Shown piece by piece: positions 1 through 15,896 of a stretch of 64,000 nucleotides of DNA; the first letter of the stretch is position 1, and every line of letters starts with the position of its first letter. The position numbers and the translations under genes were made by a program. The notes below the pieces were generated by a model. It saw nothing but the letters and a program-made list of their open reading frames with translations, ran no database searches and was not told where the DNA came from. The stretch spans positions 992,001-1,056,000 of the forward strand of contig QUOL01000002.1 of NCBI GenBank assembly GCA_009761415.1, written 5' to 3'. Origin of the DNA: Sarcomyxa edulis (lineage: Eukaryota; Basidiomycota; Agaricomycetes; Agaricales; Mycenaceae).

Positions 1-1073
1 TCGGGAAAATATATATGGATACAATGCATTTACCGACGGTCGATGGCTTCCACGTAATCGCGCATGGCCGATGCTCGCTCAGTTCATACCCCGAGTGGAG
101 AATGCTGAAAAGCGAGAGCGCAGTAAACCTAGCTAACTTCATCTTTGAAGACATTCTCTGCAGGTGGGGAAGCATAATGGAAATCGTAACCGATAACGGA
201 AAGCCATGGGTCAAGGCGGCCGATCAGCTACAAAAGCAATATGGGATTCATCACATTCGCATTTCAGGATATAACTCTCAAGCACAGGGTGTTATTGAGA
301 GAAAGCACTATGATGTTCGGGAATCACTCATCAAATCCTGCGACGGCAACCAATCAATATGGCCAAAGGCGGCTCATGCGATATTCTGGGCGGAGCGTAT
401 TACGATCCAGAAATCGACGGGGTACTCGCCTTATTATATCGCGCACGGGGTTCAGGCGATCCACCCCTTCGACCTGGAACAGTCCACATTCATGCATCCC
501 TTCATAGACGACGATATGAATTTTGGAGAACTTATTTCAAGAAGGGCGATGAAGCTTCAAAAGAGGGACAAAGAGCTCTCCAAGGTTCAGCGAGACAAAT
601 ACCGATCGCGTCTCCAGTCGGCAGAGCAGTTTTTAAAGAAATACGAGGGACAAATTCACGATTTCAAGTTCGCGCCAGGAAGACTCGTACTTGTTCGTAA
701 TACTCGGATAGAGAAGGAACTGAACAACAAAATGAAGCCCCGATACATCGGTCCAATGGTCGTGGTTCGCCAAACCAAATCGGGAAGCTACATCCTATCG
801 GAAGTGACAGGAGCGATCGCTGAACACCGATTTGCCGCATACCGATTGATCCCATACATGAGGAGGAACGAGATAACCCTACCAGTTACTACGCTAGTTG
901 GGAAGTCGACGAAGCAGCTGGATGATATGGCCGATGAGGACACGCCTGACGAGTTTACTCTCGTGGAGCCCGGAGACGATGCACTTCCGGGAACGTATAG
1001 GACACGATTGTGGCAGTTTCCAAAAAGGCCGGAACAAGAATCTAATACGCTAAGGCCTCCGGAACGATCGTAA
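1..1073 (+). mobile_element. Ty3/gypsy-type LTR retrotransposon, integrase 3' part (5' truncated by window edge)
   Basis: This is the end of a retrotransposon polyprotein: the integrase core and its C-terminal tail. The frame is open from the window edge and stops at 1071-1073. The three acidic positions of the DDE catalytic triad can be seen: Asp in the opening MDTMHLP, Asp in TDNGKPW, and Glu in GVIERKH 35 residues further on. The stretch around TGYSPYYIAHG and the tail with RPRYIGPM-like and SYILSEVTG segments are typical of gypsy integrases that end without a clear chromodomain. Reverse transcriptase and gag would lie upstream, outside the window. The coding sequence is intact as far as seen, so the element may be young. 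The 3' LTR could not be delimited. Confidence 0.85.
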
Positions 1074-2392
1074 AGATATCGCGCGGATATCTGGAAACCT
1101 CGGGAAATACTCCAACAAGGGACCGCGAACGAACAACTCTGGATAAGGCTCCCTTCTCCACATGATACTTTGAATCACCTTTCTATTTTTCCATACAAAA
1201 ATGTACATTATTACAAGAATATCAGCACCCTTCTCTCAAGAATAACCCTTATTTCCGACCCTGTTTCGACAAGAAAAGGGATACTACCCCGAGGAAGCAA
1301 TCGATTCTACGTAGACTTGACTGGCCAGGTGCCAGAACAAGCGGAATCCAGGTCAACGCCTTGTTCTAACGATCGGCTGAAGAAACAAAGCAAGAGGATG
1401 ACCGGTAGACCGATCGTCTTGGCCAATTCCATCCCAAGTCGTACTTTCTCCGATAAAGCGTCACAACGAAGGCCGATCCTGAGAAATAACCGACTATAGC
1501 TCAAAAGGACGCGAAAGGACGAATTCTTGGAACAAAAGCCGATCGACGATACAAATACAGTCCGAGCAGGTAGTTATGTTCAACAATCGGTAGCCGATTA
1601 AAGGAAAGATAGAAAAAGGCCGATCGTGGCCGACTGCGAGAAATTGCCGATTACTGCTGCTCTAAGAGGACTTAGACAAATTGCTGCACCGAAAGCCGAT
1701 CGACGACACGAACGCAATCCAAGAGAGTCGCCGTGTTCAAACGATCGGCCGAAGAAACAAAGCAAGAGGACGATCGGTAGACTGATCGTTTTGACCGATT
1801 GTATCCCAAGTCGTACTCTCACCGGACCTAGACGAGTTCCTGGCACAAAAGCCGATTGTCTATACAAAGGGAATCAGAGAGGATCGCAGTATTCAACGAT
1901 CGGTGACCGGGTGATGGAACGTAAAAAAAAAAAAAAACGATTGTGGGCGACTACAACAAAATGCCGATCGCTGCTGTTCATGAGGACTTTGACGAAATTT
2001 CTGGACAAAAGCCGATCGAAGTTGTTCGAAATCGTGCACTTTCCGGTATTAAGGCCGACCGATCGACTTGGGGATTTTTGACAGGAAACCATTGTGTTGG
2101 ACATATAACCAATTGTTTATGGCCGATCTTGCGGCGACTTAAGAACGGGACCCATTGACTCGTGAAGAATCGGTTTTCTGTATTTACAGATAACCGTACA
2201 GATATACGAGTCGGCACCACCTAACGTGGTACCGACGACAAGCTACGATCCGTAAAAAATGTGATATGGGCCGAAACCCGAGGAAAAATGTCCGCAGACG
2301 CGAGAGCCCGACCGAACAAAGGACGCGCGAGGAGGGGGAATTATATGAAAGAAAAGGAAGAAGGGAAATTTTAAAAGAAGTGATTATACAAA
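1074..2392. repeat. Non-coding 3' region of the retroelement with imperfect internal repeats
   Basis: No convincing gene lies here. The sequence holds imperfect repeats. The stretch beginning GAAGAAACAAAGCAAGAGGA at 1379 returns at 1751 (spacing 372 bp). The stretch around 1625 (CGATCGTGGCCGAC) returns in diverged form near 1938 (spacing about 317 bp). The words GCCGATCG and CCGATCG recur throughout. A purine-rich run at about 2328-2382 could be a polypurine tract preceding a 3' LTR, but it also overlaps the 3' flank of the minus-strand gene that ends at 2393. No matching terminal repeat was found inside the window. Confidence 0.5.
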
Positions 2393-4980
2393 CTACTTAG
2401 CTTGCCTTGAATCCTTCTTCTCCTTCTTCTTAACGATCACCACCCCATCTAACCTGCTCGACCCTTCTCCGACGTCGTCCTGCCCAGGAAGAGGCGCGGG
2501 AGGCCCACCGAACGAGTACGAAAGCCCTTCGTTGAAAGCCGATTCTACGGCGCCGAAGTGCAAGTTCATCGCGTCCTCGGTTATCTTGGCGATCTGGCCA
2601 GCGACGAATGACGAGAAATCCCGCTCGAACCTCTTGCTAGAAGCAGACCACAGGGCTCGGAGGTGTTTTTTGGCCGCATCGTTAGCGGCGGCCTCCTCGG
2701 CGTCGTTGGCAGCAACCTGAGAAGCGGTGTCGAAGTCTGGAGAGAGCGGGGGAGGGATGTTTAGACGTCGGTCAGGAATTTTAATACTAACTCCCGTACG
2801 CAGACGCGTACGGGAATACGGACCTTCGTCGTCATCCTCCATTTCCTGGTCCTCGTCGGCTTTCTGCTGTTGGTGCGAAGGGACTATGTTCCGACTGAAC
2901 GATTCACCAGGAGGAGGAATGCCGGGCTCGGTGACCAACTTCAAGAGGCCGTCTGCGATGTACTTTGCCTTGTCCGCGCTGGTGAACTCGTTAAACTTGA
3001 TCGAGCACTTGTGCTTGTCGCGGATGCACTTTCGGCAACGTCGGCCGGGGAGACCGACGCATGGCTGTACATCGAGCGCGATCCGGCAAGGGCGACACAT
3101 CAGATGCTATAAACAAATGAACAAAGTCAATAAAAGGAAACCGCTGGAGGGCGGTAATATTACAAGGAGAAGGAAACTACTCACCTCGAGTCGGAAAACT
3201 TCGCCTACAGCCAAAGCGCGTTGACGTCGAACACGCGTAGTCGCCGGCACGGTCTTAGGAGGGGGTTTCTGTGCCTCCTTGGGGTCGGCTGGACCTTTTC
3301 CCTTTCGAGCTCTCTTCTTTGCCGGAGCGTCGGAGTCTCTGGTGGAAGAAGTCGCGATGACTTTCGGATCGACCTTGGTCTTGGGTTCGAAGGGAACGAT
3401 ACCGGTGAATTCGATCTCGGAGTCGGTTTCGTCGGTCTTAGCGCGTTTCTTTCCTTTTCGCTTTGACGATGTCGACGTAGACGCTGCTGGCGCGGGGGAA
3501 TCGCGCGGCGTTGGAGTGTCGGACAAAGGAATTGGAGTCGGTGCCTTCCGCTTTCCTTTCGACGAAGCGGACTTTTGAGGAACGGCCTTCTTCGGTTTTG
3601 GCGGCGGTGGAGGAGCTATGCGAGGAGACGTTGGTGTGCGATCACGATCATCGTTCTCGGCCATGGGAGAAGGAGGGCGCGAGCGAGGAGGATCGATAAC
3701 GTCTTGACGATCGGGACCGTCAGGCGCATAGGAATCGGACAAAGTTGGGGGAGGAAGGGATAGGTTAGGGACGATGAGTTCGAGGGCGGGTGAAGGAGGG
3801 CGAGCGATCGGGGGGGGAGGTCGACTTCCATCCGCGCCTCTGCTGGAGGCGACTCCGGAGGAGGATCTTCATAATCAGGAATGAATCAGTAAGAATGATG
3901 GGTAACAAGGGGAGGGTCACTCACCAATCATCATATTTTCCACTTCTCCCTGCGATGAATCCCCCGTTCCCGAATTCGCCCCTTTCTCTGGTACGACGTC
4001 CGCCCTTCGGGCTTCCGCCTGTTCCTTTTCGAGCTCGTCGAGTCGTCGGTTTCCTAGAAGACAAGTAAAGGTTTTGAATGAAGTTTAGAAAGAGGAGGAC
4101 GTTTGCTTGGGTAGGACTTACTGATGGCAGCGGCGTCTGTCTCCTCGCGACCCAAGTTCTCCGACTCATTCAGAACGTTGCCTGCCGAGCTCTCTGGACG
4201 AGCGACTGTTCCATCCTCGACGATCTTCATCCCCAAAATGTCGCTCTCGATCGTACGATCGAAGTCCCCTCTCGATCCCTCGCCCTCGAAGCCTTCTGCG
4301 CCCGGCTCGACGTCGAGCCGTCCGCTCGTCGGTGAAGGAGGAACGGGGCTTGGCGACCCAAAGCTGCTGACCTGAGGCGGAGGAGTGTCTGGACAGTGAT
4401 ACCAGAGGCAATCGAAAGCCCATTTTGGAGTCCACTTCGACGACCTTATGAATTCGAGGGCTTCAGGCGTTATCTGGGGGAGGTCGTCGACCCAGTCGGG
4501 AAAATCGTCGTCGTCTCCGTACACCGCCTCGGCCCAGTCCTTAATCTCGTTGATGAGAGTGGGAACTGGTTTACGGGCAACGGGCGAGTGAGCGTTGATG
4601 TTAAAAGAGCTCCCGGCGAGTCTGGGATAGAAATCGTGTCGCTGAGGAAGGACGGAACGAGAACGACGTGACGTAGATTGGGTCAGCAGGATGGGGGGAA
4701 CGCCTTCCCCAGGGCCACTGAGACGAGACGTTGATGTATGAGAAGCGATCGGCGACGTCAAAGACGCGTTTGCCGCGAAATGAGTACGAGGGGTGGATGT
4801 CGAAGGTTGGCTGCGAGCAAACGGCTCGGACTTTATGGCGAGGAAGGGGTTGCGAGGAGCGGCTGCCTGCATCCTGGCAGGACTAATCCGCCGAGGAACG
4901 CCGCGGATGGCAGAGGACGACGCGGTTGGCTGTGATCCGCGACGACTCTCGTCATCGGGATTCGTCTTTGTACGTGCCAT
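2393..4980 (-). pseudogene. Zn-cluster (six-cysteine) protein beside the retroelement, one frameshift
   Basis: Four exons fit well: 4122-4980, 3925-4053, 3185-3866 and 2393-3106, with introns of 68, 58 and 78 nt, all GT-AG and phase compatible. The product is Ser/Pro-rich and charged. Its last exon opens with six cysteines spaced C-x2-C-x8-C-x7-C-x2-C-x6-C, close to a fungal Zn2Cys6 cluster. It then has an acidic stretch and a helical tail. Exon 3 is interrupted: a run of eight C (minus strand, about 3810-3817) leaves the upstream frame out of step with the rest, and one further C would restore one open frame. This may be a real loss or a base-calling error. In my recollection similar proteins are multi-copy and linked to retroelements in agaricomycetes; the function is unknown. 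DNA binding is inferred from the cysteine pattern only. Confidence 0.6.
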
Positions 4981-5750: not shown

Positions 5751-6703
5751 TTAGAATCGGCTGGCCTGGCGACTAGGAGCGGATCGGCAATGAGGGTTTT
5801 CCCTAGGACCACGGCGCGGCAACCTTTCCCGACTGCCTGACGGACCGGCGAGACCTGGCCCTCTGGCATCAGGTATCAATGGCCGACCGAACGTATTGTT
5901 GGTGCCGCTCGAATTGCGAACAGGTGCGGGAACCGCCCCGTGTAACAGTACCTCTTCGTGTCCATCCTTTGTGGGGAACTGGCGCACGTATGGGAGAAAG
6001 GGCATTCCGGGATCAATCGTTCCAGGATCGACTTGACCGATCGCCTTCGACTTAAGCAAGTCATTGATCTGTCTTTCCTTCATTCCCTCATCGGCACCAT
6101 ACCGTGCGAAAGTATCCGAAAAACTATAACCCTGGAAGTCGATGGCGGACGATGCGTATCCGGGCTTGAAATAGGCAGAGATCAGTAAGGCCGATTGGTC
6201 ATAGACAGCTTTGGGCATACCTGGGCTATAAGATCGCACTTCAACCCGTTTAACAGAAAGCCGACATTTCTGACATTGACCCCTACATAATCACCTTCGA
6301 AGCCGAACTCCCGAATAAAGTATTCGAGCATGGCTACCGAGAGGGTCGCCTCGGCAGGAACGTCGACTGTCCGCCAGTCCCCCGCCTGGATCGCTTGAGC
6401 GATTCGTAACTTCATAGCTTGATGCTGAGCATTGTCGCTCCTCAGTATCAACAAGGGAAGCGCCTGGATACTGGATCGGCTTACAACATAATTAATCACT
6501 TTGGCGATAACGGTTCTTATCCAAAGGCGTTCTTCAATGGCAATCGCGCTGGTTGCGCGGTCGACAGTCGATAAATGAACAATGCCTAGAAGGTGCCGAA
6601 TCGAGGCGGACCAAAGGGTGGCCATGTCTTGTGGAGGAGCGCCCCTGGTGTCACTTGGGTCCTCTGCGAATTTGTTCGCCGATAAGCGAAGTAAAAATGA
6701 CAT
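5751..6703 (-). CDS. Array paralogue F (unknown family, 278 aa)
   Basis: This is the last of six tandem minus-strand paralogues. The exons are 6485-6703, 6221-6424 and 5751-6164; the introns of 60 and 56 nt are GT-AG and phase 0. The N-terminal exon (73 aa) carries block 1, here SIRHLLGIVHL, in place of the F-LRPM-type segment of its relatives. The second exon carries block 2 (DVPAEAT) and then FGFEGD. Block 3 (IDFQGYS) opens the third exon, followed by a basic, proline-rich tail that the other copies lack. I recognise no known domain, signal peptide or membrane segment. The function is unknown. The start is the ATG at 6703, which gives an N-terminus of the same size as the other copies. Confidence 0.55.
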
Positions 6704-6749
6704 CGCGGTACAGGGATTTTTTGAATCAAGACCGGGTTACACTCTCTAT

Positions 6750-7490
6750 TTATTCGAATTCAGCGTCGCTCACGCCTGGGTCGTCCTCGGACGATACTCC
6801 GTTCGGGGCCGGCCACATCTCGTAAGAATCCGATTGATCGCCCCAGCCGTTCCCCTCGTCACCATTCATTTCGTATCCTCCATCGGTTCCCCAGGCACCG
6901 AACCGATCGGCCGCTACATCGTAGTCTGGCGATGCCTCGCGAGCGAAGCCGTATTGAGGCCAGTCGAAAGGGTCTGTGGCTTGGCTGTAGTTGAGAGCAG
7001 CCAATCGGCTAAGCTCAACAAGGATCTCTACCGATCTCTCCCTCCATGTATCGCTGCCCTCAAAAACGAATTCGGAGCGATCGGCTGCCCTCCATATAAG
7101 GCGTAGATCGCTTAGCATCTGACCGGACTCGGATGGTACCCGGTTCTTGTTTAAATCGGCATCTGAGACACGGTTGCGCGCGTTCCAGAATACAATCTAA
7201 AAAAAAACTTGTCTAGGTCAGAAAAGGGCCGATCGAGGGCCGATCGACATACGCACCAACAGTTTCATGACCGATCGAATGGAGCTGGCAAAGGACGTGC
7301 GATCGACCTCAGAGAGGGACGGGAACTCGCCACTTGGGTCGAGTACGGGAAAGATTTTGGATGCGACAAGGCCGATAATGGGACGAAGGTACCGACGAAG
7401 AAAGCGATCGGCACTCTCATCGTTACTGATCCAATGGAAGCTGGCGTCCTTGACGAGAACGTCGAGTATGGCTATACTAAGGGGGTCCAT
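6750..7490 (-). CDS. Array paralogue E (unknown family, 226 aa)
   Basis: Two exons, 7257-7490 and 6750-7196, are separated by a 60-nt phase-0 intron (GTGCGT donor, T-rich acceptor). The start is ATG at 7490; a longer frame reaching 7556 is less likely because it breaks the N-terminal alignment with the other copies. Block 1 reads FLRRYLRPIIGLV. Block 2 is VPSES, 19 residues into exon 2. Block 3 is DPFDWPQYGF. The C-terminus is acidic with many Asp, Glu, Gly and Trp residues, and differs from the other copies. It ends 47 bp from the start of copy F. The function is unknown. Confidence 0.6.
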
Positions 7491-7778
7491 GTATGGTCTG
7501 CGATATTGACAGCAGTCGGTCGCGATGATATTGCTCTTATACTCGACGCCGAACACCTCGAATGGACAAGATCGGCCGATGCTGTGAAAAAAAAAGATTC
7601 GAGCCGATCGGCTGTGAAATCGTTTTTATTTTCAAGTATATCGTAGAGCGAGGCTATCGACTCTGCTCGCCCCTCGCCGACATTGTACCGCATGATATGC
7701 CGATCGCTGCTCCAGCTAGGACATCGCCCTCGTTTCGTCACCTAATGCGTTATCTCCACGCTCTTTTGGCTTTCTCTT

Positions 7779-8313
7779 CTACTGGTATCCGGGATAATCG
7801 ACTTGTCCGTTTCCCCTGGCAACGACGTGCCGCGTGTAAAATGCAAAGCTCGCTGTCATATTCCGAAAAGTTGTAATAACGATCGAAGATAGGCCGAGGG
7901 AATCTGCCTGGGCAATTAACAAGAGATGTGCGCGTGACCCCATGTTATGCGCTTCGGTTGGGATGCGCACGGTGTTGCGGAGTCCGCTAGCAACTGTGCG
8001 CGATCGGTAATCTAGGATGAGGGCCTGTTGTGCATGAGCGATCTTCTCGAACGATGGATCGACACTGACCTACCAAGTGCGCGAGGAATCTGATGAACTG
8101 TGTACGAGCGACAGATAGTGCGGCTTGCGCGACCATAGCATCTGCATGAAGGTTGATGCTGGCGGTGTTGTATTCGCGCTCTATCAGGTAAAGCATCGGG
8201 CGGAGCCGATAATGAAGGAATCCGTGAAATCCCTCAATCGGTACGAACGTCGGGATGAAGGAGGACGATGGCAAGGTTAACAGGGCAAATTCTGTCGCAT
8301 TATTGGACGCCAT
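7779..8313 (-). CDS. Array paralogue D (unknown family, 161 aa)
   Basis: The exons are 8074-8313 (80 aa) and 7779-8024 (81 aa plus stop), with a 49-nt phase-0 intron (GTAGGT donor). Block 1 reads FLHYRLRPMLYLIE. Block 2 is RIPTEAH, 20 residues into exon 2. Block 3 is VDYPGYQ at the very end. The ending GNGQVDYP is close to GHGQYPDF of copy B. This is one of the two shortest members and may show the minimal form of the family. No known domain is seen. Confidence 0.6.
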
Positions 8314-8366
8314 TCCTGAACAATGCTGAAGAGTACGTTATTCTGGCGATCCAACTACAGGGCCTT

Positions 8367-9052
8367 TTATAGTTGCAACTTGTCAATCTCGATCGGCACG
8401 CGAAAGCATGGATCGGCCGCACCTTCAGTTTGGAACGCGGCGATCGGTACCCCATGTATTGCATTATCTAGTGGCCAGCCTCCCTTGTCGTACCCCTTGA
8501 AATCTGCAAGCGTCTGCTCGGATATCTTTCTAACCTCGACCTCGTCCAACATGTCTCTGACTATTTGATAGGCGATAGGTGTCCTAATGGGAATGCAAGG
8601 TTCACCGTTGAGGCCGATCGCTTGAATAAGGCCGAGGATTGCCCTCAACATATACTGAGCCTCGACGGGAAGGGTCGGTATAGGCTGGCCGTCGCTGCGT
8701 TTGTGACGTCTGATCTCTTGGACTGCCGCCTGAAGCCAGAAAGGTCAAAAGTCGCGCTCGGCTTCCTTGTCCTGATTGCTCGACGCACCAGGATTTCAGT
8801 TATTTGCTTAACCATCCACCGGGCATTGTGGACGCCTTGGTTCTCCTTCATCTTGTAGAGATCGCTTCTCGTCTCGGGCAAGGGCAGGGGCACGACGGCA
8901 GCGATATAGGCTAACAAAGGGCGGACGTGCTCCGCAAGGAAGTTTCTAAGCTCGTTTTCTGATCCAAGGTTTTGCCGATCGGGTAGGGCAACTTGGACAA
9001 ATTGCTGTATCTTCTGGTTACCTTCAAAGTTCCACTGCTTTGACGACGCCAT
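8367..9052 (-). pseudogene. Array paralogue C (unknown family, frameshifted)
   Basis: Exon 1 (8789-9052, 88 aa) carries FLAEHVRPLLAYI and ends at the family's conserved phase-0 intron position. A 59-nt intron (8730-8788, GTGCGT donor, pyrimidine-rich acceptor) leads to exon 2. Exon 2 begins AAVQEIRRHKRSDG in the expected frame, but block 2 (LPVEA) and everything after it lie in another frame. A single-base loss near 8689 would explain this. The rest reads on to the stop at 8367, with a block 3-like DFKGYDKGG. A different acceptor could rescue the frame (for instance one 80 nt from the donor), so a functional gene is not excluded. Confidence 0.5.
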
Positions 9053-9402
9053 TACGAAGGATACAGGAGATCGACGTGTCTATAGGAGATATAGGAAAAT
9101 TTTTGAAGCACCGCCGCATGTTTGGACCTGTGGGGCTTTGTGGACGCCACTGCCGCTCGATCGCGTCGCGTGTCCTGGACTGGCTCAGGTAATTATTCCA
9201 CGATTATTCCAACTGAGAGGTATCTACGAGACCCCGTCATCTGCCGTTGGATCGACATCGTTCATCTAATCGTCTGCCTCTCCTGCCTGGGCTCTCTCTC
9301 CTCGACTGTGCGGCCGATCGTCTCTGTTTTTTTTTCGCAACGTTTAGTCAAAGGGTCACAGGAGAAAAGCGATCGCTTGCCGGTTCCGGTATTGGTAGAA
9401 TT

Positions 9403-9952
9403 TCAGCCTTGATCAAAATCAGGATATTGGCCATGGCCGATCAGTGTCCTGCCCAGTTCCTCTGCTTCAGCTTTCAGCTTCCCCAAGAGGGCTACGTAGA
9501 AGTTGTTCGCGTCGTCTTTCCAGTCTTCATAGAAGCCGACTCTGTCTATGACAATCAGGGCTCGTTCGAGCATGATTGTCGCCTCGGCGGGAATTTGCCG
9601 ATCGACGGTTCCTGTATCGGATACTGTGTTTTCTCTGTGATCGATTATCATGGCCTTTACCAGCGGTTAGCTCCCTTGCAGAACGTTTGAAAAGGACTTT
9701 TCGACGCACGATGTTGGATAAGAAGAACGCCATGAGATGGCGTGGGACGCTATACTCCGCGATCGGGTTGAACGACGTGGTCGGCAAGAACATCACCGGG
9801 TGCGGTAGGATTCTCTCTATAATACTGAACATTGGTCGAAGGCGGTGCTCGAAGAATTCAGGAATGGTTTCGCGTGCTGCGACGCTGGCCGATTGGTCGA
9901 TACGAACGTACAAAGAGAAGAACTCCGTTAGGAGAGAGTGATCGGGATTCAT
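9403..9952 (-). CDS. Array paralogue B (unknown family, 164 aa)
   Basis: The exons are 9710-9952 (81 aa) and 9403-9654 (83 aa plus stop), joined over a 55-nt phase-0 intron (GTGCGT donor). Block 1 is FFEHRLRPMFSIIE. Exon 2 opens AMIIDHRENTVSD, closely like ALILDYRSRTVAS of copy D, then block 2 (QIPAEAT) 20 residues in, then RVGFYEDW, and the ending GHGQYPDFDQG. An alternative 49-nt intron (9612-9660) also keeps the frame but destroys the match to copy D, so I prefer the first model. The function is unknown. Confidence 0.6.
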
Positions 9953-10234
9953 TCTAACGGGGATTTTTCACGGCACGGGAAGGCGCTGTATTCTAGATAT
10001 CAAGCCATTCCTGGACGACCTTTATACCAACTACGGATTGGAAATCCGGCTTTTTCCATGGAATAGTTTTTTTTTGTGCCCCCGATCGGCTACCTCTCCC
10101 TTCCAAGAAACCCTCTCCCCGAAGGACCGATTGCAGTACCCCCTTTTTCAGCCGTTCCGTGCGACCACTAGTCGCGGCATTCCGTCTTCGGCACTTGCGA
10201 TTAGTTGGGCAATCCCTTGAGAAACATTAGTCAT

Positions 10235-11047
10235 TTAAACCGCGGACCGGCGGTGAGCGTTCCACTCACGGGCTGTCTCTATGTCTGTCTCCCGATTCAG
10301 AGATGGCCTGTCAACTGCCTCTTCCCCTTCGCGAATCTCTTCGCCCATTTCTGTATCGCTGTCAGTGGCGACGGTTCCCTCTTCTTCCCGTCGGACCGGG
10401 AAAGGTAGAGTGCGACGCGCGACCTGCAGATTGGTGTGTAGAATTTCGCCAGTAAGGCTAATGCGATCGCCGTATAGTCTTGGTTGAAACTCCTCGATGG
10501 CCGCACATAACATGTTCGATGGATCGGCCTCCATGTAGTCCAAGTTTACTCCCGACCGAGATCGACGCGCATACAGCTCTAGGAACTGCAGATCACTGTA
10601 TATCCTACTAGCCTCTTCCACTAGGGTATCGTGTGTGAAACCAATGACATACACAAATCGGCGAGTCAGGACGACGAGCGCTGTTGCTTCTGTGGGGATC
10701 GGCTCCTTGTTATCGCGATACCGATTTTCAATGGTCCAACGCAGGCGGAGGATAAATGACTACAGTGCAGGGTTAGCTTCGGGTCCTGGTGTTCGACCGA
10801 CTGTGCTCACTAGGTGATCGCATATAATCCGAACGTGCTTACGAATAACTTCTACCCCACGCGGCGTAAATTCTTCATGAAGTTCGTTGCCGATCCTGTC
10901 CTGGAACAGTGTACAGAAGACGATGTTGACCATGGACCGGAGATTAACGCGTAGATACCGACGGAAAGTATTTTTCGATATTTCGGGGTCGATACCCTCC
11001 AGGTCGAGTGAGAGGTCAGCAAAAAGCTCTATAGCGACGGAATCCAT
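10235..11047 (-). CDS. Array paralogue A (unknown family, 253 aa)
   Basis: This copy is the most upstream of the array. The exons are 10811-11047 (79 aa) and 10235-10759 (174 aa plus stop), with a 51-nt phase-0 intron (GTGAGC donor). Block 1 is FRRYLRVNLRSMVNIV. Block 2 is PIPTEAT, 20 residues into exon 2, followed by YVIGFTHDT. Block 3 is NLDYMEADPS. It then continues for about 110 residues with an acidic Glu/Asp-rich C-terminus not shared with copies B and D. No known domain is recognised. Confidence 0.6.
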
Positions 11048-11750
11048 GATGAGCGGCGTCTACTTCGTGATCGGCCTGCCGCTTTTATGCGTACCACAGG
11101 ACCCTCGGGACCCCGGCGATTGCCCTCTGGTCCTCTGCCTACGGGTTCCCTGATCTGGTTGATCGACCGAGGACGGTCGATGTTCAAAAGTTAGGATGGA
11201 GTGTGAGGATGTGAACATCCCTAGCCTGCGACATCCTAGTTCCTATCCATTTCATGAGTACGAAGACATTAACCCCATGCCGATCTAGGTTTCTCCCCGA
11301 AAGACCATCCCTCACCTACCCGCTCAGTACTGCGTTCACGCTTTGACGACTTTCCTCAGCCATTACCCCTGTATTCCCACAGATGAAGAGTTCAACCAGT
11401 CACCAGAAAAATTAACGACAGTCTAGAAGAAATCACGACTGAAGTTTCCAATAGACGACTCCACGACTCCTAAAAAGATCCCGTCCGTCATACAGTTACC
11501 CATGAACTCCCTGCCAAAACGCATTTTCCTCTGGAAATACTGATCGCCCAATCCACACACACGCTCCTATCACTCCTTGTACCTTGCGCCCACACGTACC
11601 TGGTGGCCTAGCCTATCACTCCTGATACACAATTGACGAACTTCCCTATCTATCAGCCGATCGGTCGCCGAAAGGATCCGAGACCTGGCTATCGCTGCCG
11701 ACAATGAGGCCAAACGCGATCGCTTTCTGTAGAAGGTTCGGTTACAAAGT
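11048..11750. other. Intergenic, no gene seen
   Basis: No reading frame here is convincing. It includes the presumed promoter side of paralogue A and leads into the tandem repeats. Confidence 0.4.
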
Positions 11751-11751
11751 C

Positions 11752-11949
11752 GGCCGACACTTATCTTGGTCTAAGGATTCGAACGCGCAACCGACCGATA
11801 ATATGCACCAACCGATCGGCCGACACTTATCTTGGTCTAAGGATTCGAACGCGCAACCGACCGATAATATGCACCATCCGATCGGCCGACACTTATCTTG
11901 GTATAAGGACTCGAACGCGCGACTGACCGATCCTATGCACTGACCGATC
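11752..11949. repeat. 66-bp tandem repeat, three units
   Basis: The word GACACTTATCTTGG recurs at 11756, 11822 and 11888, an exact 66-bp spacing. The first two units are nearly identical and the third is diverged. On the minus strand each unit contains GTTCGAATCC or a close variant, which matches the B box of RNA polymerase III promoters (tRNA T arm). Upstream of it is GGCCGATCGGTTGG, which resembles the tRNA D arm/A box. Derivation from a tRNA-like SINE is an inference. Confidence 0.75.
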
Positions 11950-12415
11950 GGCCGACCTAGTCATCCAGCGATTTCAAGTTACGGATCTTATCCGTGCAGA
12001 TGACACGCATGTGTAATGCCATTCGACGCGACATGCTGTCCCAGGAGTAGCCGATCGTCGTTTCCATCCAATGATTCGAACCCGCGACTGACCGATCCTA
12101 TGCACTGACCGATCGGCCGACCTAGTCATCCAGCGATTTCAAGTTACGGATCTTATCCGTGCAGATGACACGCATGTGTAATGCCATTCGACGCGACATG
12201 CTGTCCCAGGAGTAGCCGATCGTCGTTTCCATCCAATGATTCGAACCCGCGACTGACCGATCCTATGTGCTGACCGATCGGCCGACCTAGTCACTCGGCA
12301 ATTTCAAGTTACGGAACTTATCCATGCAGATGATACCATGGCCGATTGGCCGATCCAATTAAACAGCCGACCAGTTTATCCCGGCTTAAGATTTCGAGCG
12401 CGCGACTGACCAATC
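11921..12415. repeat. 165-bp tandem repeat, two identical units and a diverged third
   Basis: Units start at 11921, 12086 and 12251 (GACTGACCGATCC). By eye the first two units agree at every position. The third is recognisable only at its start and in patches. A further fragment begins near 12404. The minus strand of the junction carries CGCGGGTTCGAATC, a B-box-like sequence, preceded by GGCCGATCGGTCAG. The two identical units point to a recent duplication. Confidence 0.8.
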
Positions 12416-13140
12416 CTTTGCACTGGCCGATCGGTTGACCCATCCACCAAGCGATTCTAAATTATGGATCTATCAAGACAAAATGAAGCATATGTGTAAC
12501 ACTATTCAACGCGACATGCTGTTCCAGGAACGGCCGATTGTCGTCTCTACCCAAGGATTATGGCTCGTAGCCGACCGATTCCAAGAATTGGCCGATCGAC
12601 CGATCCAGTAAAGCGGCCGATTCGATAGGAAATTCGCCAAAGACCGACATAGCGACAATAAGGGGTTGCCCTTCGACACAACCGATCGGAAACGAAAAGT
12701 CTGCATTCGAAATACGCTCTACCAATTTTAACGGACATCCCCCCGGTGGAACCAATATCCGGTTCATGCTGCGTGCATCGTTCTTTATCGGAAATAGGCC
12801 TCGAGGGGTGGAAAGGCGAACCCCTAATCGCAAGAGGCGAGGAATACTTATACCGGACTTGTAAAATACATTACGGTAGCTACGGGTAGACCCCCCCCCA
12901 TCTCTGTACGAACGAAATAATCAACAAACCCACTCTATACAAGGAGAAGTAGCTCACTTCTCACCTTCTAACGAATTGCTTCGACCGATCGCCTTTCTGA
13001 AATCTCCCAAATCCGAACAAACTATTGCTGCGACCGTAAACCGATCGGCTAAGTCGTTCACTCCCAGTTCCTTTACCTCTAAATTCGAGAGGGCTTCCTC
13101 TCGTCGCATTATAATTCTCACAGAGGTCATTTAGACCTCT
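12416..13140. other. Repeat-derived DNA, no gene
   Basis: Diverged pieces of the 165-bp unit and more CCGATCGG words continue to about 12.6 kb, then thin out. The last dense occurrences are near 12.98 and 13.04 kb. No coding potential is apparent. Confidence 0.4.
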
Positions 13141-13159
13141 CCATTATATTTACTTATAA

Positions 13160-13310
13160 AAACCTCGAGCATTTAGGTATTACCGTCAAGTACAAATCCC
13201 CTCAAACAAACGTCACCTAAACCCTTAGTGGACGAACTACTGTTAGGTTGCAGAAACTATTTCGCACCTAGCGCCGCAGTCCTCATCACATCGGAATACT
13301 TGAAATCACA
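13160..13310 (+). repeat. Diverged copy of the 5' flank of the 14.7-kb gene
   Basis: This segment aligns by eye with about 14700-14815. Shared landmarks in order are AATCCCCTC, AACGTCACCT, GCAGTCCTCATCACA and a preceding GAACTAC-GTTAGG stretch. The copies differ by substitutions and small gaps. They are direct repeats about 1.5 kb apart, so they may be a duplicated gene fragment or the ends of a decayed element. Confidence 0.55.
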
Positions 13311-14255
13311 CACGAACAACTTCTCCGAAGGAAATCTACCGCCAGAACCCAATTCCCTATCGTCGTTTCACCTGACCGAAGGCCCAATGTACTCGATCAC
13401 CTCTCCGCAGCCCCCTAGATCCTTCGGACAGATCCCAAATCGTTTCAGCAGGCTCCCTTTCACCTCTAGAAGACCTCATCGAGAGATACTTCACCGATAA
13501 AACATTGCCACCAGTCGACATACCGCCAACGTGATGCTTACTGCCCTGAGCTGTTCTTCCTATCAAATCGGACATATTCCCTTTACATTGTGATCTCAAT
13601 TCACACCTTTCCATGCATCTGGACGCCTCGTTAAGACCTCCGTCCACCCTGACCAAGTGGTGCTACGGAATATTCTTCCCTCTGTGTTTATCACATGACA
13701 CAGCACTTGTAAGCGAGGTATCGCCCGCTAACAAAGACACTACAGGTCTCCGCCTAGCAACCCACATCAAATTCACTCTTCTCGGACAACTTTGGCCGTC
13801 GCATCTTGGAAAAATCTATCGGAAGCTCCCCATCATCCTGCTCACTCGGACATGTTTCATCCCTTCACAAATTCACCTTGCAACGCTTTCAAGAAAACAC
13901 CTCAGGCCCTAACCTTTCACACTGAGCGAGGTTCGGACACATCAAAACCAATACCGGATCTGTTTCATCATTGGAGATCTCGGGGACCTTGGGATGGCAC
14001 TCGGGGTGAAGAATTAGGCAAGGACAGGGAAGGAATTCATATATAAAGTAGGATAGGACATGGAGAACGGTAGATAGAACAAGTGTGGACGAGAACCAGA
14101 GGAACACACCCGAATCGACCAACTACCCAGTCACTCTCTATAGGAATTCTATCCCTTTCTCATACTTCTGAAACCGAGACAAGGAAACGATTACAGGAGT
14201 CGGTCAAACAAAGAGAAAAGGACTTGATTCAGCCAGCAGTACCACCCCCCCGGAA
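13311..14255. other. No gene seen
   Basis: Several short frames occur on both strands, but none has splice partners or a recognisable domain. The sequence is C/T-rich on the plus strand and looks like decayed repeat DNA. Confidence 0.35.
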
Positions 14256-14610
14256 CAAAGGTAGCTCTCCGAAATCAGTCCAGAGCTGTCCGAAACCCTC
14301 GAAGCTCTCCGAAATCAGTTCAGAGCTGTCCGAAACCTTCGATAGCTCTCCGAAGACGTTTTATAGTTATACAAAGCATCGGTCAGCTCACCAAAAGCTG
14401 TCCGAAGCCCTCGAGGGTTCTACAAGATCGAACTTATAGCTGTCCGAAGCTCTCGATAGCTCTCCGAAGACGTTTTATAAGCCGTCCGAAGCATCGATCA
14501 GCTCTCCGAAAGCTGTCCGAGGCCTTCGTAGGTTTTCCAAGAACGAACCTATAGCTGTCCGAAGCCTCTAAACGGCCTACCGAGAACGAACCTACAAGTC
14601 CGAAGCTTAC
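14256..14610. repeat. Degenerate repeat block with core AGCT-TCCGAA
   Basis: The word AGCTCTCCGAA or AGCTGTCCGAA occurs about ten times within 350 bp. A higher-order unit is visible: GATAGCTCTCCGAAGACG occurs at 14341 and again at 14455 (spacing 114 bp), each followed by related sequence. It lies just upstream of the gene at 14.74-15.9 kb. Confidence 0.7.
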
Positions 14611-14741
14611 CTTACACCTCATCATCTCATACCCACCTCACCACCGTTTTACGGACACATTATCCAAACACAAGTCACTGGGCATTAGGATTTCTCGCTA
14701 CGTAAAATCCCCTCCGAGAAAACGTCACCTTACCCCCTAGA

Positions 14742-15896
14742 GGCGAACTACAGTTAGGAGTCTAGCCCATCTACTCCTAGCACCGCAGTCCTCATCACAA
14801 CGGGAACTGAAGAAGATTGGGGCCAGGCTTACCAACCGTGCAGCAGCAAACGATGTGCGCACCACAATCACCCGTATAAGTTCAGAGGTATGTTCCCTGA
14901 TCAGCCTTCTCTGATACAGGCATAAACTGACTCCTCACTTGTAGCTACAAAGCCTGGGAGACCGTACCGGCATCTACGCGCTTCTCCTAGTCACAAGAGG
15001 ACATATCGACGATACGGTGGCACCTAGTCTCTCCGGCACACGCGACTCGCTCGACTTCTTCTACGACATACTGCAGAAAGATGCCTACGACGTGGTACGG
15101 CTCTTCGAGCAGTGGGCTTGTAATAGAGCTTTAGGTAAGTGCCTATATCTCATGTTCCATACGTCGTTGACTTGACCCTTGCTCTTACAGAAAGCATGGA
15201 GCGCGACACGTTGTCCAGCATGCGCGTGCAGTGCTCAAAATTAATCCTGAAAGGCTTGTGTGAGTACAGTTTTCCGAAGCGCCGTTTGGTGATTCCCCCC
15301 AGCTGATTATCCTCTTAGGTATGGCTGCCCAATCGAAGGATATCACGATGAACTACGCGAACTACGACACCGCCATAGTCAAGCGCTATCGCGTCCGCAT
15401 CCAATGGCCACCCGGTATCAAATTCTCCAGCCCCTCTGATATCTCCGTAATCGACGACATCCGTCGTCTCCGCGATGACCTCAAGACGGGGGCCTGTTGC
15501 TGGATTTGTATGAGTGTCAGTGAAGTCGAGAAGCACATGAAGAACCTCGTCGACGCCTTGCCAGAGGGTGAGACAGTAGGAAAACCGAGGAAAAAGAGGT
15601 CGGATGCTGGGAAGCCACGAAAACGGAAGGCGGCGGGTGACGAGAGCGGTAACATCGAGGGAGGAGAGACACAGGGACATGCCAAGAAGAGGAAGAAGAC
15701 GAAGGAGGGTATCCAGGGTGACACAGGAGAAGGTCCCCAGACGACGCGCAAGAAGAAGACAACGGTACGAAAATCGAAGAAAAACCTCTCCGGGAAGCTC
15801 CCCCCCTCCATGACTCACAGGAGTCAGTCCCATATCAGCGCCGACGAGGACAGCGATAACGACGCCGACAATGCTGACAATCGCGCCAGCGCATGA
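14742..15896 (+). CDS. Agaricomycete multi-copy family protein of unknown function, 5' end missing
   Basis: Exons joined by canonical introns give one reading frame. The pieces are: exon to 14888 (...TRISSE), 14945-15133 (LQSLGDRTGIYALLLV), 15191-15260 (ESMERDTL...) and 15319-15896 (CMAAQSKD onward). The core with NYANYDTAIVKRYRVRI, then IQWPPGIKF and SPSDISVIDDI, resembles a family that I remember as abundant and uncharacterised in mushrooms. The C-terminal half is a lysine/arginine-rich tail with nuclear-localisation-like runs (KKRKKTK). No ATG lies in frame between the upstream stop near 14738 and the core, so the 5' end is lost, lies in an unfound exon, or the copy is defective. Confidence 0.5.

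What the first reader, a model, noticed from the sequence alone, without database searches (positions are those of the whole stretch)
5751..11047. Tandem array of six highly diverged paralogues of an unrecognised family
Six consecutive minus-strand genes (starts 11047, 9952, 9052, 8313, 7490, 6703) share one architecture despite very low identity. Block 1 is an F-x(2-4)-LRPM-x2-I-type segment in an N-terminal exon of 73-88 codons. Block 2, [IVL]-P-x-E-[AS], lies about 20 residues into exon 2. Block 3, D-[FYW]-x-x-Y-like, comes further on: VDYPGYQ, IDFQGYS, FDWPQYG, LDYMEAD, ADFKGYD, PDFDQG. C-termini differ in length and charge. This looks like an old, rapidly diversifying cluster in a repeat-rich compartment. 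I know of no described family with these blocks. A role in conflict, allorecognition or effector function is speculation.
Basis: partly seen in the sequence, partly recalled or inferred. Interest (0 to 1): 0.82.

Follow-up and report, generated by a model that had tools for sequence, protein, structure and literature searches.

The report
Antisense gene array in giant retrotransposons
The six odd genes are not a local host gene cluster but a conserved block of extra, intron-containing genes carried backwards inside large fungal retrotransposons that have copied the whole block around the genome, which suggests that the genes help the transposon to survive in its host.

Summary
In detail: six diverged minus-strand paralogues share a phase-0 intron and three blocks. 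The context changes the interpretation. The array lies between pol and the 3' LTR of a 20.6-kb Ty3/gypsy-type LTR retrotransposon with identical LTRs, antisense to gag-pol. Eight near-identical arrays are dispersed in the genome. A second family carries most of the same block in 31 copies: 16 have one version (G') of a six-cysteine gene, G, and 15 of these have integrase (one is cut by a contig end); 15 have another version (G'') and no integrase of their own. The array proteins are under purifying selection (31 synonymous, 29 nonsynonymous changes in genes A-E of 8 copies, p=2e-6; no coding indels). Between families they diverge far more (dN 0.50-0.89) than integrase (0.065). Family 1 is filled with its own motif (CGATCGG, about 75x background in the LTR), which family 2 lacks. 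Best reading: an element-encoded regulatory, possibly anti-silencing, module in which G binds the motif and the array proteins assist; this function is inferred. Closest known: plant Retand antisense ORFs and VANC anti-silencing. New variant of a known kind. Allorecognition or effector roles have no support.

The parts
1..1073 (+). C-terminal (integrase) part of pol of the family-1 element; gag-PR and the RT/RNase H part lie just outside the window (C12:986754-992000)
   Evidence: 100% identical at C4, C34, C5 and C15; 88% identical over 353 aligned codons to the C1 copy of family 2
1074..2392 (.). post-pol non-coding region with degenerate repeats (about 156-bp spacing), dense in CGATCGG (8.3/kb, counted on 1074-2395)
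   Evidence: 11 observed, shuffled mean 0.34
2393..4980 (-). gene G, four exons as modelled (4980-4122, 4053-3925, 3866-3185, 3106-2393); basic stretches and a six-cysteine cluster CX2CX8CX7CX2CX6C; the frame of this window copy appears interrupted
   Evidence: GT-AG introns; substitutions among three copies fall at codon positions 1/2/3 = 23/14/44 over the three ORF pieces (which include some intron ends)
5751..6703 (-). array gene F, exons 6703-6485, 6424-6221, 6164-5751 (278 aa)
   Evidence: 48% identical to F' of family 2
6750..7490 (-). array gene E, exons 7490-7257, 7196-6750 (226 aa)
7779..8313 (-). array gene D, exons 8313-8074, 8024-7779 (161 aa)
8367..9052 (-). array gene C, exons 9052-8789, 8729-8367 (208 aa); no family-2 counterpart found
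9403..9952 (-). array gene B, exons 9952-9710, 9654-9403 (164 aa)
10235..11047 (-). array gene A, exons 11047-10811, 10759-10235 (253 aa)
11154..11201 (+). conserved stretch directly before the 3' LTR, purine-rich at its end (polypurine-tract-like); 85% identical to family 2 over 73 bp across the boundary
11202..13290 (+). 3' LTR of the family-1 element (TGTGAGGATG...CTCATCACA), identical to the 5' LTR at C12:984684-986772; 66- and 165-bp tandem repeats inside
   Evidence: 2090 of 2090 aligned bases identical, one of them before the TG
13291..14802 (+). fragment of a family-2 LTR (from about nt 243), directly abutting the family-1 3' LTR
   Evidence: 97% identical to LTR2

Best explanation
The array is the accessory gene block of a giant Ty3/gypsy-type LTR retrotransposon, lying between pol and the 3' LTR and read from the opposite strand. 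SHOWN: element structure, dispersal, conserved order and intron positions, purifying selection, faster divergence than the pol enzymes, and existence of a pol-less subfamily that keeps the block. INFERRED: because the genes are antisense, their introns are not removed from the genomic RNA and survive reverse transcription. INFERRED: gag-pol can be supplied in trans and was dropped by the pol-less subfamily, whereas the block was kept, so the block probably acts mainly on the element that carries it. Most likely function (inferred): a self-directed regulatory module. Gene G, with a six-cysteine zinc-cluster-like domain, would bind the family-specific CG-rich motif that fills LTR and non-coding DNA (CCGATCGG contains two everted CGG triplets, the usual half-site of Zn2Cys6 proteins, recalled). 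The soluble, probably helical array proteins would work with it to keep the element transcribed or to lift host silencing, in the manner of VANC in plants.
For: LTR pair 2090/2090 identical, gag-PR, RNase H and H2C2 integrase domains on the + strand, array on the - strand. Eight family-1 arrays with all A-E exons full length, without gaps or internal stops. Second family: 4-bp duplicated flanks in 2 of 2 insertions read, same primer-site sequence and LTR ends. Purifying selection; the pol-less C5 copy against pol-less C6 differs at codon positions 1/2/3 by 1/0/23 of 472 each. Integrase presence and G type partition the 31 arrays: 15 carry G'' and none of these has an integrase that is not better given to a neighbour; 16 carry G', 15 with integrase and one cut by a contig end (matched by coordinates). 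Motif CGATCGG: LTR1 22 observed against 0.69 in shuffles, post-pol 11 against 0.34, array 22 against 2.0, rest of window 7 against 8.8; LTR2 has none. G' and G'' cysteine spacing CX2CX6CX7CX2CX6C.
Against: No expression, binding or silencing data. Pfam does not recognise G as Zn_clus in the window (no hit at E<=1); only E=0.086, below cut-off, for G''. The spacing in window G (X8) departs from Zn2Cys6. Motif density in coding exons (3.6/kb) is not much lower than in array non-coding DNA (5.1/kb), unlike VANC targets. Where examined, G is under purifying rather than positive selection. AlphaFold models are poor (pLDDT 50 and 56); the F model has no fold match. Intact arrays in pol-less copies could in part reflect recombination with pol-bearing copies.
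Confidence: 0.45

Rival explanations
1. The block is a drive, killer-protector or element-exclusion cassette: its proteins harm cells or rival elements that lack it, and so favour the element that carries it.
For: Lineage-specific, fast-diverging paralogues; kept by a pol-less subfamily.
Against: No strongly hydrophobic segment in 11 proteins; within-family selection is purifying, and none of genes A-E is lost in the 8 family-1 arrays.
Confidence: 0.12
2. The proteins are particle or replication accessories (packaging, nuclear import, movement), used in trans together with Gag.
For: Six soluble, helical-looking paralogues could be structural; the N-terminal gag also diverges fast (dN 0.39-0.54 for the first 400 codons).
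Against: Such functions are usually supplied in trans, so a pol-less subfamily would be expected to lose them; no Gag or Env family in Pfam for the array.
Confidence: 0.2
3. Captured host genes that benefit the fungus; the transposon is only a vehicle.
For: Introns and gene-like organisation suggest a cellular origin at some point.
Against: By position the genome hits of A, B, C, D and F at E<=10 fall in or beside these arrays, except one weak hit (E=0.03, C36:1120830); I did not inspect each (E was not searched). Only 4 unnamed relatives in 5.8 billion proteins, while a gag-PR query in the same database found 53; the word-based search can miss fast-evolving proteins.
Confidence: 0.1
4. One reading: a host cluster for conflict, allorecognition or effector function.
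For: Diverged tandem paralogues.
Against: The array is within an LTR element and dispersed in 8 near-identical and 31 related copies.
Confidence: 0.03

Closest known systems
Retand lineage of plant Gypsy LTR retrotransposons (PMC11963269; abstract and passages read)
   Same: Long pol-3'LTR region; ORFs antisense to gag-pol; probable DNA-binding product; family-specific tandem repeats; some elements non-autonomous
   Different: Fungal rather than plant; seven intron-containing genes, six of them paralogues, where Retand mostly has TRP28 ORFs; no TRP28 match; the tandem repeats found here lie mainly in the LTR; 10.1 kb rather than 2.9-6.6 kb between pol and LTR; the word intron does not occur in that paper's text
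VANC sequence-specific anti-silencing of Arabidopsis VANDAL transposons (PMC5735166; outline with abstract and passages read)
   Same: Element-encoded evolving protein, short motif dense in the element's own DNA and differing between related families, tandem repeats
   Different: VANDALs are DNA transposons (recalled); anti-silencing was measured there and not here; the motif here is also common in exons; no VANC similarity was tested
LTR retrotransposons with extra ORF3 in bdelloid rotifers (PMC5408684; listing and passages read)
   Same: Extra genes downstream of pol
   Different: In the passages read the extra ORFs are of env, esterase or exonuclease type, not a diverged antisense paralogue array
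Fungal Zn2Cys6 zinc-cluster proteins (recalled; Pfam PF00172 tested)
   Same: Six cysteines with the classical spacing in G' and G''; CGG-type candidate motif
   Different: Pfam score below cut-off or absent; window G has one longer spacer

Membership tests
Ty3/gypsy LTR retrotransposon (autonomous) | Two direct LTRs with TG...CA ends | tested here: met
   LTR1 2089 bp identical pair; LTR2 1748 bp identical pairs in C6 (pol-less) and C1
Ty3/gypsy LTR retrotransposon (autonomous) | gag, then PR, RT, RNase H, IN in that order | tested here: met
   gag-asp_proteas 2.7e-7, RT_RNaseH 3.8e-16, Integrase_H2C2 7.3e-17 in this order. The RT (RVT) and integrase-core (rve) models did not score; the window's integrase part links to rve-scoring relatives (C12:704985)
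Ty3/gypsy LTR retrotransposon (autonomous) | Short target-site duplication | tested here: inconclusive
   4 bp in 2 of 2 family-2 insertions read; not seen at the window copy, which is flanked by family-2 fragments
Ty3/gypsy LTR retrotransposon (autonomous) | tRNA primer site after the 5' LTR | tested here: inconclusive
   TGGAGCCCACCGCG follows both LTR types; 32 genome hits of its complement, no tRNA gene identified among them
Retand lineage | Antisense ORFs between pol and 3' LTR | tested here: met
Retand lineage | TRP28 domain (PF04195) | tested here: not met
   No such hit for the array proteins at E<=10 or the G pieces at E<=1
VANC anti-silencing system | Element-specific short motif enriched in own DNA, different in a related family | tested here: met
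VANC anti-silencing system | Protein binds the motif and removes methylation | not testable with these tools
   Needs binding and methylation assays
VANC anti-silencing system | Sequence homology to VANC | not tested
   No VANC sequence was compared; Pfam gave no usable family for G or the array
Zn2Cys6 zinc cluster | CX2CX6CX5-12CX2CX6-8C (recalled) | tested here: inconclusive
   G' and G'' fit, window G has X8 in place of X6; Pfam PF00172 E=0.086 for G'' only

The most novel reading that the evidence does not exclude
A fungal retrotransposon lineage carries a multi-gene, sequence-specific self-protection module. A zinc-cluster-like protein (G) that turns over fast among elements recognises a family-specific motif spread through the element, six paralogous partners execute the effect, and a pol-less subfamily that parasitises the autonomous one keeps only this module, with its own G type. 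It would be the first VANC-like anti-silencing system that I know of in an LTR retrotransposon or in fungi.
Probability: 0.27. Interest if true: 0.87.

Novelty: new variant of a known kind. Interest (0 to 1): 0.63.

Why it matters
It shows an LTR retrotransposon lineage carrying at least seven intron-containing genes, the array genes kept intact through repeated copying, and a derivative that gave up gag-pol but kept the cargo. That makes a general question testable: what do antisense accessory genes of retrotransposons do, and do they act in cis against host silencing? It also warns annotators that such 'orphan paralogue clusters' in fungal genomes can be transposon cargo.

Tried and rejected
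Pfam and PDB profile searches with the six proteins: nothing useful. Protein database: 4 relatives for the array, all resembling B', E' or F, none named; the gag-PR control found 53, among the named ones Galerina, Mycena and Candolleomyces. AlphaFold of one public relative and of F, with exon fragments as a shallow alignment: helical, pLDDT 50 and 56; Foldseek on the F model only, 3 matches, all E>=8. Downstream flanks of 2 of the integrase relatives at 40-50% identity, 10 kb each: no array found (best E 0.42). Tandem LTR repeats as tRNA-like B boxes: 9 one-mismatch hits in the window against 5.4 in shuffles (10 of 100 shuffles reach it), rejected as evidence. A C gene in family 2: not found. 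Positive selection on G: not seen; differences at codon positions 1/2/3 are 28/25/79 in 684 sites between two pol-less elements, against 2/0/12 of 472 sites each in the A'/B' part of the same pair, so G looks like an older allele shuffled by recombination. Rows dropped: L047 (misaligned beyond its end); gene F from the within-family-1 counts (incompletely covered; one search ended with an error there, after printing A-E). Insertions relative to the window copy (0-12 bases per copy) were counted but not sorted by region. One search failed on orientation and was redone. The organism was not identified.
Full report
1. The observation. The six minus-strand genes are real. Leave-one-out profiles exceed all 1000 shuffles for exon 2 in 6 of 6 genes, and for exon 1 in 4 of 6 (A: 3 of 1000 shuffles as good; F: 354 of 1000). 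F belongs through exon 2, intron position and its family-2 counterpart.

2. It is a mobile element. The window is G000:C12:992001-1056000 of an unnamed 35.6-Mb genome. Searching single spliced proteins (A, B, C, D, F) against that genome gave eight near-identical arrays on C2, C4, C9, C12, C16 (two), C23 and C34 (97.8-100% DNA identity per A-E exon), a ninth F at the end of contig C5, and many relatives at 28-60% identity. Window 11201-13290 is repeated at C12:984683-986772 with 2090 of 2090 bases identical: these are LTRs. Between them, on the + strand, lie a gag-protease ORF and a pol ORF, then 10.1 kb in which the genes found are on the minus strand. The element is 20.6 kb.

3. A second family. 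The relatives read lie in elements with a different LTR (1748 bp, identical pairs in C6 and C1). The LTR ends and primer-site sequence are the same, the array is also antisense, and gene A is nearest the 3' LTR. Two of two insertions read have 4-bp duplications, GCGT in element orientation. A', B', D', E' and F' are present; C' was not found. There are 31 arrays, counted by F' exon 2. Of these, 16 have an opposite-strand integrase within 12 kb (using the 19 family-2-type integrase matches), but one of them (C8:15970) probably by its neighbour's. G DNA probes divide the arrays: the C6 type (G'') matched 17 places, 15 of them at arrays without their own integrase and 2 fragments; the C1 type (G') matched 20 places, covering the other 16 arrays, of which 15 have integrase and one (C11:1298) is cut by a contig end (matched by coordinates). 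The pol-less elements thus look like an established subfamily (C6 copy 11.7 kb) rather than random deletions.

4. Selection. Among eight family-1 arrays, genes A-E show 31 synonymous and 29 nonsynonymous variable changes for 707 and 2329 sites (binomial p=1.8e-6); deletions touch 0 of 3051 coding and 66 of 1260 non-coding sites. Pol-bearing C1 against pol-less C6: codon positions 1/2/3 differ at 5/7/54 of 1141 sites each. Pol-less C5 against C6: 1/0/23 of 472 each. For G, three family-1 copies differ at 23/14/44 sites by codon position. Between families, dN is 0.61 (A), 0.75 (B), 0.89 (D), 0.84 (E) and 0.50 (F), against 0.065 for integrase, 0.04-0.45 in windows along the RT-RNase H ORF and 0.10-0.54 along gag-PR; synonymous sites are mostly saturated. 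The array is thus constrained within a family and evolves quickly between families, faster than the enzymatic parts and on average faster than gag.

5. Gene G. Four exons as modelled in family 1, basic stretches, and a six-cysteine cluster: CX2CX8CX7CX2CX6C in the window, CX2CX6CX7CX2CX6C in C1 and C6. Pfam Zn_clus reaches only E=0.086 in C6 and nothing in the window. Pol-less C6 and C34 have A'/B' array genes that differ at 14 of 1416 coding sites examined, but their G first ORF differs at 132 of 684 sites, mostly third positions. G therefore has an older history than the array beside it, which points to recombination among elements.

6. Motif. CGATCGG occurs 68 times in the window against 13.1 expected; per kb 10.5 in LTR1, 8.3 after pol, 5.1 in array non-coding, 3.6 in array exons, 2.1 in gag-pol and 0.14 in the rest of the window. 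In the C1 family-2 element it is near background (LTR2 none; 0.2-0.4 per kb elsewhere), and LTR2 has its own repeated AGCTGTCCGA. CCGATCGGCCGA occurs 71 times in the genome against 1 for the reversed control; by position 63 of 71 lie in matched LTR1 stretches or beside family-1 arrays, and 8 (C1, C3, two places on C12) were not examined. Zn2Cys6 proteins usually bind CGG triplets (recalled), and CCGATCGG holds two. The link to G is inference.

7. Explanation. Antisense placement lets intron-bearing genes survive an RNA life cycle (inference from the known mechanism). Losing gag-pol but keeping a selected block suggests a function tied to the carrier. I favour a self-directed regulatory or anti-silencing module (about 0.45 for the whole statement; the element identity alone about 0.97).

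8. Known things. Plant Retand elements have antisense ORFs between pol and 3' LTR with probable DNA-binding products and family-specific repeats (PMC11963269, abstract and passages). VANC proteins bind family-specific motifs and lift silencing (PMC5735166, abstract and passages). Bdelloid LTR elements carry extra ORFs (PMC5408684, passages). A review of giant transposons was read in passages (PMC6431247). The listings of searches (titles and abstract starts of the best rows only) showed no fungal LTR element with an antisense paralogue array; the library lacks most subscription papers and all preprints. The family's apparent absence elsewhere rests on a word-based search that can miss fast-evolving proteins.

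Noticed in passing
window 13291-14802 and L069:1-2683: The window element shows no target-site duplication and is flanked on both sides by family-2 fragments (LTR end plus gag on the left, LTR from about nt 243 on the right), as if inserted with a deletion or recombined.
   Followed up: partly
window 11750-12340: 66- and 165-bp tandem repeats in LTR1 contain a tRNA T-arm/B-box-like stretch, five with one mismatch; not above chance for the window as a whole.
   Followed up: partly
L070, L071, L072, L073: Both family-2 insertions read have the same 4-bp duplication (GCGT in element orientation), a possible target preference (2 of 2).
   Followed up: no
C6 against C34:39.9-47.7 kb (L070, L046, L078): Third-position divergence in the first G ORF is about 35% while in the A'/B' array genes of the same two elements it is 2.5%: mosaic elements with old G alleles.
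   Followed up: partly
C7, C8, C9, C11, C16, C23, C25 near contig ends: Several copies lie within about 15 kb of contig ends: subtelomeric preference or assembly breaks.
   Followed up: no
public protein P0004: A further F-type sequence (65% identical to window F) exists in public contigs, so at least one more family may occur.
   Followed up: no
window 2393-4980: The window copy of gene G appears to have an interrupted frame; two other copies differ in length there.
   Followed up: partly
C36:1120830-1121219: A weak match to A (E=0.03, two stops) away from known elements; relic or chance.
   Followed up: no
C1:3399027, C3:78588-78731, C12:525579-525887, C12:955410: Eight copies of the 12-base motif CCGATCGGCCGA outside the family-1 places known here; perhaps solo or broken LTRs.
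   Followed up: no
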